From IMG/VR virus record IMGVR_UViG_3300037069_001617, positions 1 through 34,956 of that record: a DNA stretch of 34,956 nucleotides, one strand, 5' to 3'. A program made the translations under genes and the position numbers. Shown here piece by piece: positions 10,179 to 21,613 of the stretch (within the stretch, counting starts at the first letter, position 1; each line of letters begins with the position of its first letter). The notes under the pieces are model-generated. The model was not told the DNA's origin and made no database searches. It was given only the letters and a program-made list of their open reading frames with translations. The stretch is from a virus.

Positions 10179-12104
10179 GTGATCCCCGCCGAATGGGCCA
10201 CGCTGGACTTTGAGACCTTCCCGATAAAGCAGCGGCCGGAATATCCGCCGCGGCCGGTGGGGATGGCCCTGCGCGCCCCTTGGCTGCCGGAGCGCTATTT
10301 CGCTTGGGGCCACCCGACGGCGAACAACTGCACCCCGGAGGATGCCCTGCGCGAGCTCGGCCGCGTCTGGGACAGCGGAATTCCGATCCTGTGCCACAAC
10401 GCGAAATTTGACGTGGAGGTGGCGACGGAATGGTTTGAGCTCCCCATGCTGCCATGGGACCGGCTCCACGACACGCAGTTTCTCGCCTATCTGTGCGATC
10501 CGCACGCGCGCCACCTCGGCTTGAAAGAGCTGGCGGAGGATTTGCTGCAGTGGCCGCCCGAGGAAAAGGACGAAATGGCGGCCTGGATCATGGAGCGCAG
10601 CGCCCAGCTCCTCGCCGCCTATCCGTGGAATCGGGAGTGGGACAAGGCCGCCGGCCGATTCAAAACCCCCAAGAAAATCACCAAGACCAAGACCGGCATG
10701 TGGATTTTCGCCACGCCGGGCGACATCGCCGGCAAGTACGCGGTGGGCGACATACAGCGCACCGACGGGCTGTTTCGCCACCTGGCGCCGCTGGTGGTGG
10801 ACCATGGAATGGAGCCCGCCTATGACCGCGAGCGCGAGCTTATGCCCATCCTGCTGGCCAACGAGCGCGAGGGGATGCGGTGCGACGTGGACCGGCTCCG
10901 CGTGGACGTGGGGCTTTACCAGAGCTGTTTCCGCAAGGCGGAGGACTGGCTGCGCAAAGAGCTTCTGGCGCCGGCGCTGAACTTCGACGCGGACCAGGAC
11001 GTGGCGCAAACCCTGTCCCGAATGGGGATTGTGAAGGATGAGGACTGGCAGACCACCAAAGAGGGCGGCCTGTCCATGTCAAAGGACAATCTCCTGCCGC
11101 GCATGTTCACCGGGCCCAACGGCGCGGCGATCGCCAGTGCGCTGGGCTACCGCAACCGGCTCAAAACCTGCCTGCGCATGTTCATGGAGCCGTGGCTGGC
11201 GCAAGCGGAGGGCAACCGCGGCCACATTACCACCAACTGGAACCAAGTCCGTGACCCCGAGGGCGGTACGCGCACCGGCCGGCCTAGCACCGACAAGCAC
11301 AATTTCCTGAATATCAGCAAAGACTTTGAGGGCCGCACCGACGGCTACCTGCACCCCGAATTCCTGGATGTGCTAAACCTGCCGCTGTGCCGGCGCTATG
11401 TGCTGCCGGACGAGGGCCACACCTTCCTCCACCGGGACTTTGACGGCCAGGAAATGCGGGTGTTCGCCCATTTCGAGCAGGGCCGGCTCTGGAGCGCCTA
11501 CGAAGCGGACCCGGCCATTGACCCGCACGCGGTGGTGGGCGCGGAGCTCCTGCGTCTCACCGGCCAAGAGCTGGAGCGCACCAAGGTAAAGGTGCTGAAC
11601 TTCCAGGCGATCTATGGCGGCGGCGTCCCGGCTGCACAGAAGAAACTCAACTGCAGCTACGCGGAGGCCAAGGCTTTTAAAGCCTTCCATGAGAAGGGCC
11701 TGCCAGGCCGCAAAATCCTGAACGATGAAATTCTTAAAATTGTCCGGGCTGGCGAGCCCATCCGCACATGGGGCGGGCGACTCTACTATCCCGAGGCGCC
11801 GCGTTTCGACAAAGAGCGCGGCCGGATGCAGAGCTATGAATACAAGCTGATAAATTACGCTGTGCAGGGCAGCGCGGCGGACCTCACCAAAGAGGCCATA
11901 ATCCAGTGGAACCGTGTCAAGGAGCCACAGGCGCGTTTCCTGGTGACAGTCTATGACGAAATCAATATCAGTGCGCCATCCGAGGAGAAAGAAAGGCACA
12001 TGGCGCTATTGCGTGATGCCATGGAGGCTAGTAGGTTGACGGTGCCGATGCGATCCAGCGGCAAAGAGGGACCGAATTGGGGGACTTTGAAAAAATGCGC
12101 CTAG
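10179..12104 (+). CDS. Family A DNA polymerase with 3'-5' exonuclease
   Basis: Replicative polymerase, 641 aa, GTG start with GAGGAG 8 nt upstream. N-terminal DnaQ-type exonuclease: Exo I DFET (D10, E12), Exo II HNAKFD (N74, D78), Exo III YAVGD (Y187, D191). Polymerase palm/fingers: motif A RDFDGQEMR (D420, E425), motif B RTKVKVLNFQAIYGG (R467, K471, Y479), motif C VYDE (D593, E594). No 5'-3' nuclease domain. Catalytic Asp residues are all kept, but motif C has Tyr where His is usual in VHDE, and motif A departs from DYSQIELR. It should copy phage DNA with the Toprim-SF3 protein at 4497. Confidence 0.92.
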   Translation: MIPAEWATLDFETFPIKQRPEYPPRPVGMALRAPWLPERYFAWGHPTANNCTPEDALRELGRVWDSGIPILCHNAKFDVEVATEWFELPMLPWDRLHDTQFLAYLCDPHARHLGLKELAEDLLQWPPEEKDEMAAWIMERSAQLLAAYPWNREWDKAAGRFKTPKKITKTKTGMWIFATPGDIAGKYAVGDIQRTDGLFRHLAPLVVDHGMEPAYDRERELMPILLANEREGMRCDVDRLRVDVGLYQSCFRKAEDWLRKELLAPALNFDADQDVAQTLSRMGIVKDEDWQTTKEGGLSMSKDNLLPRMFTGPNGAAIASALGYRNRLKTCLRMFMEPWLAQAEGNRGHITTNWNQVRDPEGGTRTGRPSTDKHNFLNISKDFEGRTDGYLHPEFLDVLNLPLCRRYVLPDEGHTFLHRDFDGQEMRVFAHFEQGRLWSAYEADPAIDPHAVVGAELLRLTGQELERTKVKVLNFQAIYGGGVPAAQKKLNCSYAEAKAFKAFHEKGLPGRKILNDEILKIVRAGEPIRTWGGRLYYPEAPRFDKERGRMQSYEYKLINYAVQGSAADLTKEAIIQWNRVKEPQARFLVTVYDEINISAPSEEKERHMALLRDAMEASRLTVPMRSSGKEGPNWGTLKKCA

Positions 12105-17145: not shown

Positions 17146-18117
17146 CTATTTGCCTTGCAACTGCAAGGCGCCCACGGCGCCGCGGAGATACTCGGGTGCG
17201 TGCTTGGCATAGACGCGCTCCACCGTGGCCTCCGTGTCGCCCAACATCCGCGCCACCTGAGCGAGCGGAACGCCGTCCATCACCGCCCAAGTGGCCGCTG
17301 TGTGGCGCAGGACGTGGGGCGTGACGTCCACCAGCCCGGCACGCCGGCACGCCGCAGCAAAGCCCGTCTTGACCGTCCGCACTGGCAGCCCGCGGAACTC
17401 CACAATGGAGTCGGAGCAGGCCACCGCCTTGGCGCCGCGGAGCGTCAGCAGCAGCTCCGGGTTTATGGGTACGATCGCCCGGCGCTTGTTCCCGTGGCCC
17501 CGGCCGAAGCTGAGCACCCGCCGGTCCCAATCCACCTGGCTCCAGCGGGCCTCTAAGATGGCGCCTGTCCGGGCGGCCGTCATCAGGGCCAGCGTTATGA
17601 ACACCCGCATGTGCGGCTCCCGGCAGGCCTCCAGCAGCGCCCTGGCCTCGGCCTTGGTGATCCAGCGTTCCTTGGCCGGCGGGATTTTCACCGGGTTGGA
17701 GATTTTGGGCAGCTCGTCAATCCACTGGTGCTCTACAGCCCACGCCAGGGCGGCGCGGAGCACGCCCACCTCGCGGAGCACCGTTCCGTCGGCCACGCCG
17801 CGGGCGGCCGCCCAGCGCCCTATAACAGGCGGGGTGAGCTGTGTGGGGTAAAGGTCACGAAGTGGGGCGAGGCCCAGCACGGCGAAACGGATGGATTCAG
17901 GAGCCCGTACTTTTACAGCCTTGGCGGTGTAGTACCCGTCAAGGACCGCGCCGACGGTCACTCGCTCGCCGGTGTGCTCGCCTTCGGTGGCGATGAATCG
18001 CGCAAGTGCCTGTTCGGCGTGCCGGCGATCCTTAGAGCCCGTGGAGATTTGCCGGCGCAGCCGCGGCCCGTGGAGGATGTACCAGACGCCATTTGGCCGT
18101 TTCCAGAGCTGGTGCAT
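17146..18117 (-). CDS. int: Tyrosine-family phage integrase
   Basis: 323-aa site-specific recombinase. N-terminal part (1-50) is an arm-binding-type domain (VWYILHGPRLRRQISTGS), residues ~55-145 a SAM-like core-binding domain, and ~155-320 the catalytic domain. Catalytic residues: R183 (TAARTGAILEARW), K211 (HGNKRRAIVPI), H268 and R271 (HVLRHT), Y303 (VERVYAKH). The position usually filled by His in LGH is Asp 294 (MLGDTEA). It integrates the genome at tRNA-Thr through attP immediately downstream. Its gene start is overlapped by the excisionase-like frame. Right attP palindrome lies inside its last codons. Confidence 0.93.
   Translation of the reverse strand: MHQLWKRPNGVWYILHGPRLRRQISTGSKDRRHAEQALARFIATEGEHTGERVTVGAVLDGYYTAKAVKVRAPESIRFAVLGLAPLRDLYPTQLTPPVIGRWAAARGVADGTVLREVGVLRAALAWAVEHQWIDELPKISNPVKIPPAKERWITKAEARALLEACREPHMRVFITLALMTAARTGAILEARWSQVDWDRRVLSFGRGHGNKRRAIVPINPELLLTLRGAKAVACSDSIVEFRGLPVRTVKTGFAAACRRAGLVDVTPHVLRHTAATWAVMDGVPLAQVARMLGDTEATVERVYAKHAPEYLRGAVGALQLQGK
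17152..17169. repeat. Right attP-flanking palindrome GCCTTGCA-AC-TGCAAGGC
   Basis: Same 8-bp arms as at 16969-16985 but with two central bases. It encodes the integrase C-terminal ALQLQG while matching the left site, which suggests selection on the DNA as well as on the protein. Centre-to-centre distance of the two palindromes is about 183 bp with the tRNA core between them. Confidence 0.6.
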
Positions 18118-18636: not shown

Positions 18637-18806
18637 TCGACATGCCCCGCCCTGACGACATACCACTTATCCCAGCAGGCCACGCAGCCGTCACCTCCAT
18701 GACAATATGGCTGCATGAGGCCTTGGTAGCGCTTCACCACCTCCGGCGGGCAGTTCGGGTTTTTCGCCGCGGCCCTATAGATTTTCTCGCGTCCAGAGGC
18801 GGTCAC
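18633..18806 (-). CDS. 57-residue Cys-rich small protein (GTG start)
   Basis: GTG 18806 overlaps the lysozyme stop (GTGA) and the TGA overlaps the next ATG (ATGA), so it sits exactly coupled between two genes. Residues 1-33 are basic and helical (REKIYRAAAKNPNCPPEVVKRYQGLM); then C35, C41 and C44 in YCHGGDGCVACWDKW, with C19 upstream, form a probable zinc knuckle. Gene packing makes it convincing despite its size. Function unknown. Confidence 0.65.
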   Translation of the reverse strand: MTASGREKIYRAAAKNPNCPPEVVKRYQGLMQPYCHGGDGCVACWDKWYVVRAGHVE

Positions 18807-19276
18807 GCCACAGCCCTCGCCATGTTATCGTTGCCGGCGAAATGCTGGGCCTCCGCGACGCGGCGTTTCTCCAGCCCGGCCAGCTCTTTGCCGGCCTGGC
18901 GATCCCACCGCTTGAACTCGGCGGCCGCGCCCACATAGTCCCCGGCGTTCAGCTTGGTGCCGAGGGTCTTGTGCAGAGGATCGGGGCCGGCGTTGAACAC
19001 CAGGGACACCAGGGCGTCAAACTGCGCCTGCGTCAGGGCCACCGTGACGATGTTCTTAACCGCTAGCACCGCGTCGCGTAGGTCTTGCCGAATCCAGCTT
19101 TCCGCTAGTGGCGTGTCGCACGTCGTGAACTGAGAGACGCCGGCGGTGTGGCCCCAGCCGCACGTCCACTTATCGTTGGCGGTGGGCTTGTAAGCCGTCG
19201 GGCGGAAGCGCTCGTACAGCTTGACGAAGTTTATAAGCCAGGGCGACGGCTGCAGATTTGCGTTGGCGGGGTTCAC
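18803..19276 (-). CDS. Phage lysozyme (GH24, T4-like muramidase)
   Basis: 157 aa, GTG start overlapping the preceding stop (GTGA). The N-terminus has the GH24 active site: LYERFRPTAY (general acid Glu), NDKWTCGWGHT with Asp and Thr of the E-D-T set, then LTQAQFDALVSLVFNAGP and a helical C-terminal lobe (FKRWDRQAGKELAGLEKRRVAEAQ). The Asp is three to four residues later than in T4 lysozyme, as in some other phage endolysins. No SAR or signal sequence is present, so release needs a holin; the holin candidate is on the other strand at 16034. Confidence 0.88.
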   Translation of the reverse strand: MNPANANLQPSPWLINFVKLYERFRPTAYKPTANDKWTCGWGHTAGVSQFTTCDTPLAESWIRQDLRDAVLAVKNIVTVALTQAQFDALVSLVFNAGPDPLHKTLGTKLNAGDYVGAAAEFKRWDRQAGKELAGLEKRRVAEAQHFAGNDNMARAVA

Positions 19277-19839
19277 AGGTTCACCGTCTTGAAGGTGCCC
19301 GGCACTGGAGCGCCGTCCTTGATTTCGTTTCCGATGCGGCATTCCACGCGGCCGCTTTTCAGGGCCAACTCCAGCTCCGCCATGGCGTTCCAGGCCTTGT
19401 GGGCGAGGTGCGCTAGGTCACTTTCGCTGTCATAGTCGCCCTCAGTCTTTGTTTTGAGACGGTGGCGGCCGTCGGCGTTGGCAAATCGGCGCTCGCCTTG
19501 CGGCACGTTCTGCCACCCAAGGCTGTAGTGGTTGGGCGCCTTGGCATATTTGCGGTCCCCGTACTCGCTCACATAGGAAACGGCCACGATGGCGCGGGCG
19601 AAATAGTCCAGGAAGCCCTCAACAATCGGCGGTTTGCCCATGTCCAGCTTCCGCGCCTCCTGCGTGTCGCCAGCTTGGGCGGCGCCGAAGCCAGCCGGTG
19701 ACAGCCGATCGGCGCCCACCATGCGCTGGGCGTTGGCCGTAGCAGGACAGCCGGCGGCGTGAATAAGAGCTCCGCCAATGTCCCCTTTGCAGCGGCACTC
19801 CATCGCACGGCGCTTTTCGTCATCGGTCATCATGGCCAC
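19273..19839 (-). CDS. DUF5664 / MazZ-like dATP/dGTP pyrophosphohydrolase (188 aa)
   Basis: Residues ~62-160 match the DUF5664 family (dATP/dGTP diphosphohydrolase, MazZ type): RKLDMGKPP, EYGDRKYAKAPNHYSLGW, then RH (125-126), EGDYDSESDLAHLAHKAWNAMAELEL with the acidic/His metal ligands. Family members such as S-2L MazZ cleave dGTP/dATP to monophosphate, feeding 2-aminoadenine synthesis in PurZ phages, but the domain also occurs in phages with ordinary DNA. A Cys-containing N-terminal extension (ECRCKG...AAGC) of ~55 residues is unusual. GTG 19839 follows GGGAGATTAGCC; ATG 19833 is an alternative. Adjacent to an HD phosphohydrolase. Confidence 0.75.
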   Translation of the reverse strand: MAMMTDDEKRRAMECRCKGDIGGALIHAAGCPATANAQRMVGADRLSPAGFGAAQAGDTQEARKLDMGKPPIVEGFLDYFARAIVAVSYVSEYGDRKYAKAPNHYSLGWQNVPQGERRFANADGRHRLKTKTEGDYDSESDLAHLAHKAWNAMAELELALKSGRVECRIGNEIKDGAPVPGTFKTVNL

Positions 19840-19841
19840 GG

Positions 19842-20519
19842 CTAATCTCCCTTGTAGAGGCTGTAAAAACGGACGAGGAATTCCTGGCGAGCGCGGCGCG
19901 GATGCCATGGCTCAATCACCAGGTCTTTCCAGAGCTCTGGCAGCGTGCCCCAATCCACCTCGCCAGTGACGTGCTGGAGCTGGTGGTGTTCTGTGGCGAC
20001 GGCGAGATAGTCCTGCTGTTTCACGTCCGGGTGCATTTGATCGGACAGCCCGTAGCGGCGGCGCACGGCCACCTCCAGCGGGTGCTCCAGCAGCTTCCAG
20101 TCAAAGCCCAGCTTTTTGAGATTCAGCTTGAGGGGCTTGAGCAAGTCCGGGATATAGGCTTCGTGCGCGTCATGCAGGAGACCCTCCAGCCGCAGCTCCG
20201 GCGGGCAATGGTCGCTCACATGACAGCAGTGTTGGGCGACGCTGAAAAACTCCACGTCATCCCGCAGGGCGCCGCCGAAGCGACACACCCGGCTGAGCTG
20301 CTGGGCAATGTCGTAAATACGGATGTCCTCCGGCCGCACGTCCAGCACCCAGAAGGGCTTTCCGCTGGCGGTGCTCTGGTTGTGGCCGCGGCCGTGGTCG
20401 GTGCCGGCCATCTTGCCGGTGTCCCAATGGGCCATGGATCGGTTATAGTCCGCGTCATCGCGCGCCATGGTGACGCCCAAAGGGCCAAACGCGCTGGGAA
20501 TGAGTTTTCCTTTTCCCAT
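19842..20519 (-). CDS. HD-domain deoxynucleotide phosphohydrolase, YfbR/DatZ-like (225 aa)
   Basis: Residues ~55-220 form an HD-domain fold: VRPEDIRIYDIAQQLSRVCRFGG, SVAQHCCHV (H97), LLHDAHEAYIPDLLKPLK (H116, D117) and a distal Asp 170 (KQQDYLAVATEHH) complete the H-HD-D metal site. The pattern RFGG...SVAQH...LLHDA.EAYI.D is that of YfbR-like 5'-deoxynucleotidases and of the phage dATPase DatZ. It could remove dATP or salvage dNMPs. ATG 20519 is coupled (TGATG) to the sulfotransferase. The gene and its MazZ-like neighbour form a nucleotide-pool pair. Confidence 0.78.
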   Translation of the reverse strand: MGKGKLIPSAFGPLGVTMARDDADYNRSMAHWDTGKMAGTDHGRGHNQSTASGKPFWVLDVRPEDIRIYDIAQQLSRVCRFGGALRDDVEFFSVAQHCCHVSDHCPPELRLEGLLHDAHEAYIPDLLKPLKLNLKKLGFDWKLLEHPLEVAVRRRYGLSDQMHPDVKQQDYLAVATEHHQLQHVTGEVDWGTLPELWKDLVIEPWHPRRARQEFLVRFYSLYKGD

Positions 20520-21124
20520 CAGACGCACTCCAGGTTCATTTCCAATTCCCAGAGCATGTGAGCCTCCAGGTGCTTGGATATGTTTTTGGTGAGCTCCGGC
20601 ATGGCCAGCCGGTGCGTGGTCTTGTTCAGGTGCGTGGCCGGGATGCCGAGGTGCTGCATCCAGTTCGCCAGGTCCGCGAAAGGCAGTATCTCGGTGCCCA
20701 AGTCCGGGCGGAGATAGTGCCACTGGCTCTTGGTGGTCTCGGGCATGTAGTGGCGCTGATACAGGCCCGGGTGGCCGGTCATGGCCGGCAGAAACAGCTC
20801 CTCGTTATGAAGCAGCCAGGTCTCAAAGGTCTTGCCCTGGACGCTTTCCAGCAGCGTCATAACCTGGCCCTGCGCCCACGTCGCGCTTTTCTCTGGGTCA
20901 AGCTGGCAGAGGAATTTATAGAGGCTCCACATGCGCGCCAGGGGATGGCGGACGAAGCCAAATACCTTGAAGGCTTCAAAGCCCGGCGGGATGGCGTCGC
21001 GTTCTGCGTGCCGATACAGCAGGATGCTGAGCGGGCAGACGTCGCGGATAGCGTAGTGAAGGGTGGTGCTCCCGGTGCGCGGCGGGAAAATGAAAATCGC
21101 GTTGTGCTCTGGAACTATAAGCAT
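20519..21124 (-). CDS. Sulfotransferase-like protein (201 aa)
   Basis: N-terminal AIFIFPPRTGSTTLHYAI (10-26) matches the 5'-phosphosulfate loop and FGFVRHPLARMWSLYKFL (56-71, R59 and S67) the 3'-phosphate site of PAPS-dependent sulfotransferases of the carbohydrate type (Sulfotransfer_2). The protein is short but has the expected LRPDLGTEILPFADLANWM near the end. Substrate unknown: host surface polysaccharide, a phage glycan, or a small molecule. ATG 21124 follows GGGGAGACACC. Unusual cargo in a phage early operon. Confidence 0.65.
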   Translation of the reverse strand: MLIVPEHNAIFIFPPRTGSTTLHYAIRDVCPLSILLYRHAERDAIPPGFEAFKVFGFVRHPLARMWSLYKFLCQLDPEKSATWAQGQVMTLLESVQGKTFETWLLHNEELFLPAMTGHPGLYQRHYMPETTKSQWHYLRPDLGTEILPFADLANWMQHLGIPATHLNKTTHRLAMPELTKNISKHLEAHMLWELEMNLECV

Positions 21125-21141: not shown

Positions 21142-21483
21142 CTATTCGCCGTCGGCTTCGGATTGCTTTCGCTCCGCGGCCTCGGCGGCCTGAACGGCCT
21201 CCTCGTATGTGTCCAGCAGAGCGTCAGCCTCCACGCGGTCGGCGGTGTCCATGGCGCGGCGCCGGATAACCTGGCGCATTATCTTGGTGTCGAAGCCCGT
21301 ACCCTTGGCCTCCTCCATGACTTCGCGCTGGTCCGCGCCGAGGGCTTCCTTTTCCTCCTGCAGGCGCTCATAGCGCTGCACGAAGCTGTAGAGCGCCGCG
21401 CGGGCGTTGCCACCAGGGCGCATGTCCTCGGCCGTCTTGGGTTCAACGCTTTGAGTTTTCAGTTTCGGCACGGGGGCCTCCAT
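21142..21483 (-). CDS. GapR-like nucleoid protein (DUF2312)
   Basis: Residues ~25-100 fit DUF2312: ALYSFVQRYERLQEEKEALGADQREVMEEAKGTGFDTKIMRQVIRRRAMD, then EADALLDTYEEAV. GapR of Caulobacter tracks overtwisted DNA, stimulates gyrase and topoisomerase IV and is needed for replication; the family is characteristic of Alphaproteobacteria. A phage copy could support replication-fork progress or replace/compete with host GapR. ATG 21483 is the first ATG; a TTG at 21495 is possible. The start is overlapped by a 56-codon membrane protein gene in another frame. Confidence 0.85.
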   Translation of the reverse strand: MEAPVPKLKTQSVEPKTAEDMRPGGNARAALYSFVQRYERLQEEKEALGADQREVMEEAKGTGFDTKIMRQVIRRRAMDTADRVEADALLDTYEEAVQAAEAAERKQSEADGE

Positions 21484-21613
21484 TTGCGATTTCAAGGACT
21501 GTGACGATCGCGGCGGACAACAGCGCGGCGGCGATCCATGTGTGACCGCTGGTCCCGAAGGCGAGCGCGCCCCCGATTTCCCAAGGCAGACAGCAGAGGG
21601 CGAGCACCAGCAT
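21443..21613 (-). CDS. 56-residue membrane protein
   Basis: ATG 21613 is coupled to the phosphoesterase stop (TGATG) and reads 56 codons to TGA 21443-21445, overlapping gapR by 41 nt. Two hydrophobic stretches, MLVLALCCLPWEIGGALAF and TWIAAALLSAAIVTVLEI, predict two membrane helices with a polar tail. No family recognised. Coupling on the upstream side supports a genuine gene. Confidence 0.55.
   Translation of the reverse strand: MLVLALCCLPWEIGGALAFGTSGHTWIAAALLSAAIVTVLEIANGGPRAETENSKR

What the first reader, a model, noticed from the sequence alone, without database searches (positions are those of the whole stretch)
19273..20519. DatZ-like and MazZ-like nucleotide-pool enzymes side by side in a P22-like phage
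An HD phosphohydrolase with the YfbR/DatZ signature (H97, H116-D117, D170) is followed 2 bp later by a DUF5664 protein of the MazZ type. Together with PurZ these two enzyme classes make the 2-aminoadenine (Z) DNA of S-2L-type phages. No PurZ is in the window and both families also occur in phages with normal DNA, so this may instead be a pool-control pair (dATP/dGTP removal). The window is incomplete, so PurZ could lie outside. The family A polymerase with 3'-5' exonuclease and an altered motif C keeps the idea open.
Basis: partly seen in the sequence, partly recalled or inferred. Interest (0 to 1): 0.62.

Follow-up and report, generated by a model that had tools for sequence, protein, structure and literature searches.

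The report
Phage nucleotide-pool enzymes, ordinary DNA likely
A temperate phage carries, just before its lysozyme gene, two enzymes that probably break down DNA building blocks in two steps; they resemble parts of the machinery of phages that replace adenine with 2-aminoadenine, but family tests and many relatives indicate that this phage has ordinary DNA.

Summary
The two genes are real. An HD phosphohydrolase (225 aa) is followed after 2 bp by a PF18909/DUF5664 protein (188 aa, GTG start), in a tightly packed run: sulfotransferase-like, HD, DUF5664, lysozyme. The labels "DatZ-like" and "MazZ-like" do not hold as family membership. The HD protein belongs to PHROG 318 (YfdR/Atu1052), misses the YfbR-like Pfam model and the dATP-triphosphohydrolase PHROG that true DatZ proteins match, and has Gly where DatZ has its 2-amino-excluding Ile22. 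The DUF5664 protein lacks the DUF550 half that defines MazZ-1. No PurZ is in the record (a 35-kb fragment), in a nearly complete relative with the same pair, in 16 structural relatives or in 50 phages with the same polymerase clade; the same models do find real PurZ+DatZ phages. The polymerase is not DpoZ, and its altered motif C is shared by relatives without the HD gene. Best reading: a purine-dNTP breakdown module (dNTP to dNMP, then nucleoside) in a phage with normal DNA. The DUF5664 slot before lysozyme is nearly fixed in this phage group; the HD gene is an add-on. Side finding: PurZ-like genes beside these same enzyme classes in other contigs.

The parts
19842..20519 (-). HD phosphohydrolase of PHROG 318 (YfdR/Atu1052 type), 225 aa; predicted 5'-deoxynucleotidase
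19273..19839 (-). Standalone PF18909/DUF5664 protein, 188 aa (GTG start); predicted purine-dNTP pyrophosphohydrolase; no DUF550 domain
18803..19276 (-). Phage lysozyme (PF00959); its probable GTG start overlaps the DUF5664 stop by four bases (GTGA); an alternative ATG lies upstream at 19342
   Evidence: start choice is inference
20519..21124 (-). Sulfotransferase-like P-loop protein, 201 aa; its stop overlaps the HD start by one base (TGATG); conserved upstream neighbour in most relatives
   Evidence: PF03567 sub-threshold at 15.5 bits
21142..21495 (-). Conserved small protein that marks the upstream edge of the variable slot
17146..18117 (-). Tyrosine integrase downstream of the lysozyme: a temperate phage
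10179..12104 (+). Family A DNA polymerase with exonuclease domain, of the Axeltriavirus-related clade, not DpoZ

Best explanation
The two genes encode consecutive steps of deoxynucleotide breakdown in a temperate, P22-like phage with ordinary ATGC DNA. The DUF5664 enzyme splits purine dNTPs (dATP above all, also dGTP and dUTP, by analogy with the Wayne enzyme) to dNMP and pyrophosphate; the HD enzyme then removes the 5'-phosphate of the dNMP to give the nucleoside. Together they would do in two steps what DatZ does in one. They are probably made late, in one tightly packed run with the lysozyme. Shown: gene order, overlaps, families, catalytic residues, absence of PurZ in the record and its relatives. 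Inferred: substrates, the coupling of the two steps, late expression, and purpose (trimming or clearing the purine dNTP pool late in infection).
For: DUF5664 protein: PF18909 57.6 bits, single domain like Arthrobacter phage Wayne's enzyme, shown to turn dATP, dUTP and dGTP into dNMPs with kcat tenfold higher for dATP than dGTP (PMC12884076). HD protein: PHROG 318, named 'deoxyribonucleoside 5' monophosphate phosphatase', 1e-49; AlphaFold model closest to Atu1052 (Z 21.9) and then DatZ (8.6), YfbR (7.9) and OxsA (7.6), the latter at superfamily level; metal and catalytic positions kept in 38 of 38 aligned sequences. Translational overlaps in the run. The nearly complete relative G009 keeps the whole order w21142, sulfotransferase-like, HD (62% identical), DUF5664, lysozyme, integrase. 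A PF18909 gene or domain lies directly before the lysozyme (or another cell-wall hydrolase) in five relatives (G009, G003, G008, G016, L236). PurZ: 0 of 16 structural relatives, 0 of 50 polymerase relatives, none by sensitive search in four 42-44 kb relatives; positive controls L290, L297 and L303 with PurZ plus DatZ were found by the same models.
Against: No activity of any PHROG 318 HD protein from a phage was found in the literature searched; E. coli YfdR is reported to have much lower nucleotide affinities than YfbR (PMC4776307). The HD gene is usually absent where the DUF5664 gene is present: in this phage group the full pair is seen only in the window and G009, and HD lies within about 6 kb of DUF5664 in only 7 of 80 DUF5664 contigs (5 of them one related group, on the opposite strand) and in 0 of 80 HD contigs. 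The DUF5664 proteins of the window and G009 are very distant (31% over 62 aa, E 0.003), so co-evolution is not evident. The DUF5664 model found no known fold match.
Confidence: 0.6

Rival explanations
1. The phage makes 2-aminoadenine DNA: HD acts as DatZ, DUF5664 as MazZ, and PurZ lies in the unsequenced part.
For: Both enzyme classes occur with PurZ elsewhere: DUF5664 beside PurZ0 in Wayne, PurZ-like next to a PHROG 318 HD in L101 and next to standalone DUF5664 in L204/L205/L207. The record is a fragment.
Against: No PurZ in the window, in G009, which has the same pair and nearly all structural and replication genes, or in 50 phages with the same polymerase clade. HD fails the DatZ models and has Gly at the Ile22 position. 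No DUF550 domain. Polymerase scores 98 bits against the DpoZ model (cut-off 500), below the generic PolA model at 121.
Confidence: 0.03
2. Two independent accessory genes in a cargo slot before the lysozyme; the DUF5664 enzyme trims or cleans dNTPs on its own and the HD protein has an unrelated target.
For: HD comes and goes while DUF5664 stays; in G016 the place is taken by a DUF4406 gene and in L236 by an 85-aa membrane-like protein. Pairing in other contigs is rare.
Against: TGATG and 2-bp spacing in the window put HD and DUF5664 in one tightly spaced run; G009 keeps the order although its DUF5664 is very distant; L194 and L147 also have the two next to each other. dNMP is the product of one family and the predicted substrate of the other.
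Confidence: 0.25
3. The HD protein is a YfdR-like inhibitor of host chromosome initiation that acts by binding DnaA, with nucleotide hydrolysis secondary.
For: Phage proteins annotated YfdR (mEp460, VW-6B) match the window protein at about 38-42% identity; E. coli YfdR binds DnaA and its gene cluster blocks initiation when overexpressed (PMC4776307).
Against: All catalytic residues are invariant in 38 of 38 aligned sequences, which points to selected catalysis; the slot genes found here are not of the yfdQ-yfdS-yfdT kind.
Confidence: 0.1

Closest known systems
YfdR / Atu1052 HD proteins (PHROG 318, 'deoxyribonucleoside 5' monophosphate phosphatase')
   Same: Same PHROG (1e-49), about 36-42% identity to phage members, best fold match 2gz4 at Z 21.9, all catalytic positions.
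   Different: Has an N-terminal extension (residues 1 to about 45, shared in part with G009) and a 3-residue insertion near residue 87; sits beside DUF5664 in a lysis-side slot.
DUF5664-1 of Arthrobacter phage Wayne (gp51)
   Same: Standalone PF18909-type protein without DUF550; predicted purine-dNTP to dNMP activity.
   Different: Wayne's gene lies next to purZ0 and the polymerase, this one next to a lysozyme with no PurZ; relationship too distant to place in a tree.
MazZ of SH-Ab 15497 and PMBT28 (DUF5664-DUF550 fusions) and MazZ of S-2L
   Same: Shares the PF18909 domain with the two fusions.
   Different: Lacks PF04447/DUF550, which carries the MazZ-1 core; not in a datZ-mazZ-purZ cluster.
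DatZ of cyanophage S-2L (6ZPA) and relatives (phrog_7076, PF12917)
   Same: Same HD superfamily; metal ligands and phosphate-contacting Arg and Lys positions conserved; Z 8.6.
   Different: Not detected by PF12917 or phrog_7076 and only 2.9 bits with a DatZ profile; Phe for Trp20 and Gly for Ile22.
Phage T5 Dmp
   Same: Would do a similar reaction, dNMP to deoxynucleoside.
   Different: No detectable homology: no match to the HD profile; a different protein family (phrog_415; DLDGT motif).

Membership tests
DatZ (dATP triphosphohydrolase of Z phages) | Match to YfbR-like PF12917 above cut-off and to phrog_7076 | tested here: not met
   No match for the window protein; DatZ of S-2L, SH-Ab 15497 and PMBT28 all match both
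DatZ (dATP triphosphohydrolase of Z phages) | HD metal ligands and second-metal acid (H34, H66-D67, E70, D119) | tested here: met
   H97, H116-D117, E120, D170, invariant in 38 aligned sequences; shared by the whole superfamily
DatZ (dATP triphosphohydrolase of Z phages) | Trp20 and Ile22 that select deoxyribose and exclude the 2-amino group | tested here: not met
   Phe81 and Gly83; Gly in 38 of 38 (DatZ roles from PMC8065100). Correspondence rests on the sequence alignment R-aromatic-x-I/G
DatZ (dATP triphosphohydrolase of Z phages) | One-step dATP to deoxyadenosine plus triphosphate | not testable with these tools
   needs enzyme assay
PHROG 318 HD phosphatase (YfdR type) | Profile match and fold | tested here: met
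   1.1e-49; 2gz4 Z 21.9 over 177 residues
MazZ | DUF550 / MazG-like core (PF04447) | tested here: not met
   Only PF18909 found; SH-Ab and PMBT28 MazZ show both domains
MazZ | Gene between datZ and purZ | tested here: not met
   neighbours are HD and lysozyme
Standalone DUF5664 (Wayne type) | PF18909 domain alone, above cut-off | tested here: met
   57.6 bits, cut-off 27
Standalone DUF5664 (Wayne type) | Same clade as Z-phage DUF5664 | tested here: inconclusive
   Tree of 77 rows on 119 columns poorly resolved; window does not group with the SH-Ab, PMBT28 or Wayne domains
Z-DNA (2-aminoadenine) system | purZ present | tested here: inconclusive
   absent from the 35-kb fragment; absent from a nearly complete relative with the same pair and from 16 and 50 relatives
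Z-DNA (2-aminoadenine) system | DpoZ polymerase | tested here: not met
   98 bits, cut-off 500, below generic PolA model; 23% identity to DpoZ, 38% to Axeltriavirus-type PolA

The most novel reading that the evidence does not exclude
The HD-DUF5664 run is a two-enzyme dATP-clearing module, a two-step counterpart of DatZ in a phage with ordinary DNA, made with the lysozyme to starve host or superinfecting-phage replication of purine dNTPs late in infection.
Probability: 0.12. Interest if true: 0.5.

Novelty: new member of a known kind. Interest (0 to 1): 0.27.

Why it matters
It removes a candidate from the short list of 2-aminoadenine phages and shows which tests separate true DatZ/MazZ from look-alikes: PF12917 or phrog_7076 for DatZ, PF04447 for MazZ-1. 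It also shows that a purine-dNTP pyrophosphohydrolase-type gene is nearly fixed in front of the lysozyme in one group of temperate phages, which asks why a phage would want to lower dNTPs at the end of infection. The PurZ-like contigs met on the way are better candidates for new Z-DNA phages than the window itself.

Tried and rejected
HD single-sequence scan of viral contigs: no hits; scan of genome contigs with the HD pair alignment: no relative; the same alignment on viral contigs found only G009. phmmer and profile searches of the PDB with DUF5664: nothing; its AlphaFold model (mean pLDDT 74.6, core above 90) had no meaningful fold match, so no active-site comparison with MazZ structures was possible. 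DUF5664 tree too short and long-branched to place the window protein. T5 Dmp as a homologue: rejected. DUF4406 of G016 as a DmtZ relative: no sequence support. Promoter and terminator scan around the run: no more than in shuffles.

Full report
What is there. The window is one whole IMG/VR record of 34,956 bases, a fragment of a phage genome. On the minus strand it carries P22-type head and connector genes (phrog_283, phrog_578), then a compact run of four genes: a sulfotransferase-like protein, the HD protein, the DUF5664 protein and a lysozyme, followed by a tyrosine integrase. Start and stop codons touch or overlap in the run: TGATG between the first two, 2 bp between HD and DUF5664 with a good ribosome-binding sequence, and probably GTGA between DUF5664 and lysozyme.

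Which families. The HD protein matches PHROG 318 at 1e-49. Its only clear relative among solved structures is Atu1052; an AlphaFold model with 85 mean pLDDT aligns with Atu1052 at Z 21.9 and with DatZ, YfbR and OxsA at 7.6-8.6. With the same tools, DatZ of S-2L, SH-Ab 15497 and PMBT28 match PF12917 and phrog_7076; the window protein matches neither, and a profile of the three DatZ proteins gives it 2.9 bits. In DatZ, Trp20 selects deoxyribose and Ile22 keeps out the 2-amino group (PMC8065100); the aligned positions are Phe81 and Gly83, and the Gly is invariant in 38 sequences. So it is an HD protein of the YfdR type, not a DatZ. PHROG 318's name is an annotation; YfdR itself was reported to bind nucleotides weakly (PMC4776307), so the substrate is inference.

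The second protein has PF18909 only. In Z phages with PurZ, MazZ is DUF550, often fused to DUF5664 (PMC12884076; domains confirmed). A standalone DUF5664 from phage Wayne splits dATP, dUTP and dGTP to monophosphates (PMC12884076), which is the best guide to the function here.

Is it a Z phage. PurZ is absent from the window. The relative G009 (41.6 kb) has homologues of most of the window's structural and replication genes, ORFs that look like terminase, portal and scaffold by size and order, and the same run in the same order, with HD 62% identical; it has no PurZ. None of 16 contigs with the same head-closure protein and none of 50 contigs with the same polymerase clade, about 30-78% identical, has an adenylosuccinate-synthetase-like gene (three contigs are in both sets). 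Many of these are fragments, but they include many of 35-57 kb. The same models picked out true PurZ plus DatZ phages (L290, L297, L303), so the search works. The polymerase is not a DpoZ, and the Tyr in motif C is shared with close relatives that lack the HD gene. The published survey also finds DUF5664 in phages with canonical genomes (PMC12884076). Probability of Z DNA: about 3%.

How the slot behaves. Comparing relatives, the stretch between the small marker protein (21142-21495) and the lysozyme is variable. Window and G009: sulfotransferase-like, HD, DUF5664. G003: sulfotransferase-like, DUF5664. L236, the closest relative by polymerase (77% identical): sulfotransferase-like, a small membrane-like protein, DUF5664. 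G008: sulfotransferase-like and DUF5664 fused in one ORF, then a cell-wall hydrolase instead of lysozyme. G016: an unassigned ORF, a DUF4406 protein, DUF5664. G011: a DUF6378 protein. G001 ends inside an HD gene in the slot. So the DUF5664 gene is nearly fixed and HD is optional. Outside this group the two are seldom neighbours.

Mechanism. The simplest joint reading is serial breakdown: dNTP to dNMP plus pyrophosphate (DUF5664), dNMP to nucleoside plus phosphate (HD). Order, spacing and families are shown; substrates, coupling and purpose are inferred. Rivals are two unrelated cargo genes (25%) and a YfdR-like replication inhibitor (10%).

Novelty. Both proteins are new members of known families in a known kind of setting. 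The arrangement is mildly unusual.

Noticed in passing
L101:4257-6579 (contig IMGVR_UViG_3300005841_000071): A PurZ-like gene (best NCBIfam model PurZ at 201 bits, cut-off 300; phrog_1211; Ser in place of the catalytic Asp13, motif YGSSGKG) with a PHROG 318 HD gene 600 bp downstream, a family B polymerase and a nucleotide pyrophosphohydrolase, and no PF12917 match above cut-off in the record: a possible Z-DNA phage with a different HD enzyme in DatZ's place.
   Followed up: partly
L204:4704-6297, L205, L207 (contigs 3300043117_000303, 3300036943_000417, 3300035041_000055): PurZ-like gene (Ser in place of Asp13, motif AGSEAKG, PurZ model top at about 172 bits) whose 3' end overlaps the start of a standalone DUF5664 gene, the same order as purZ0-DUF5664 in phage Wayne.
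   Followed up: partly
L290, L297, L303: Contigs with strong PurZ (441-474 bits) and DatZ (100-116 bits) matches by home-made profiles: likely further Z phages, met through a distant polymerase search.
   Followed up: no
L039:16991-17944 (G008): Sulfotransferase-like protein and PF18909 domain fused in one 317-aa ORF.
   Followed up: partly
L042:3051-3769 (G016) and L046:12304-12852 (G011): The same slot before the lysozyme holds a DUF4406 gene plus an unassigned ORF in G016 and a DUF6378 gene instead of DUF5664 in G011.
   Followed up: partly
PHROG 5033 and 2252; e.g. NC_048055 gp21, PQ867854 ORF42: The name 'endolysin; inhibits RNA polymerase' of these PHROGs is attached to PF18909 proteins and appears on DUF5664 genes in GenBank; in this phage group DUF5664 lies next to the lysozyme, a possible source of the error.
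   Followed up: partly
window:19273-19839 and L036:6669-7163: The DUF5664 proteins of the window and G009 sit in the same place but are only 31% identical over 62 aa, while the flanking HD proteins are 62% identical: replacement or very fast change.
   Followed up: partly
L243, L248, L264, L269-L270, L273-L278, L280, L287: Phages of the same polymerase clade with a DatZ/YfbR-like HD gene but no PurZ.
   Followed up: no
L003, L005 (Stenotrophomonas phage AXL_3, Pseudoxanthomonas phage PW916): Named phages with the nearest polymerases are annotated with a thymidylate synthase or deoxyuridylate hydroxymethyltransferase, dCMP deaminase and NTP pyrophosphohydrolase, which suggests thymine modification there; such genes were not seen in the window proteins scanned.
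   Followed up: no
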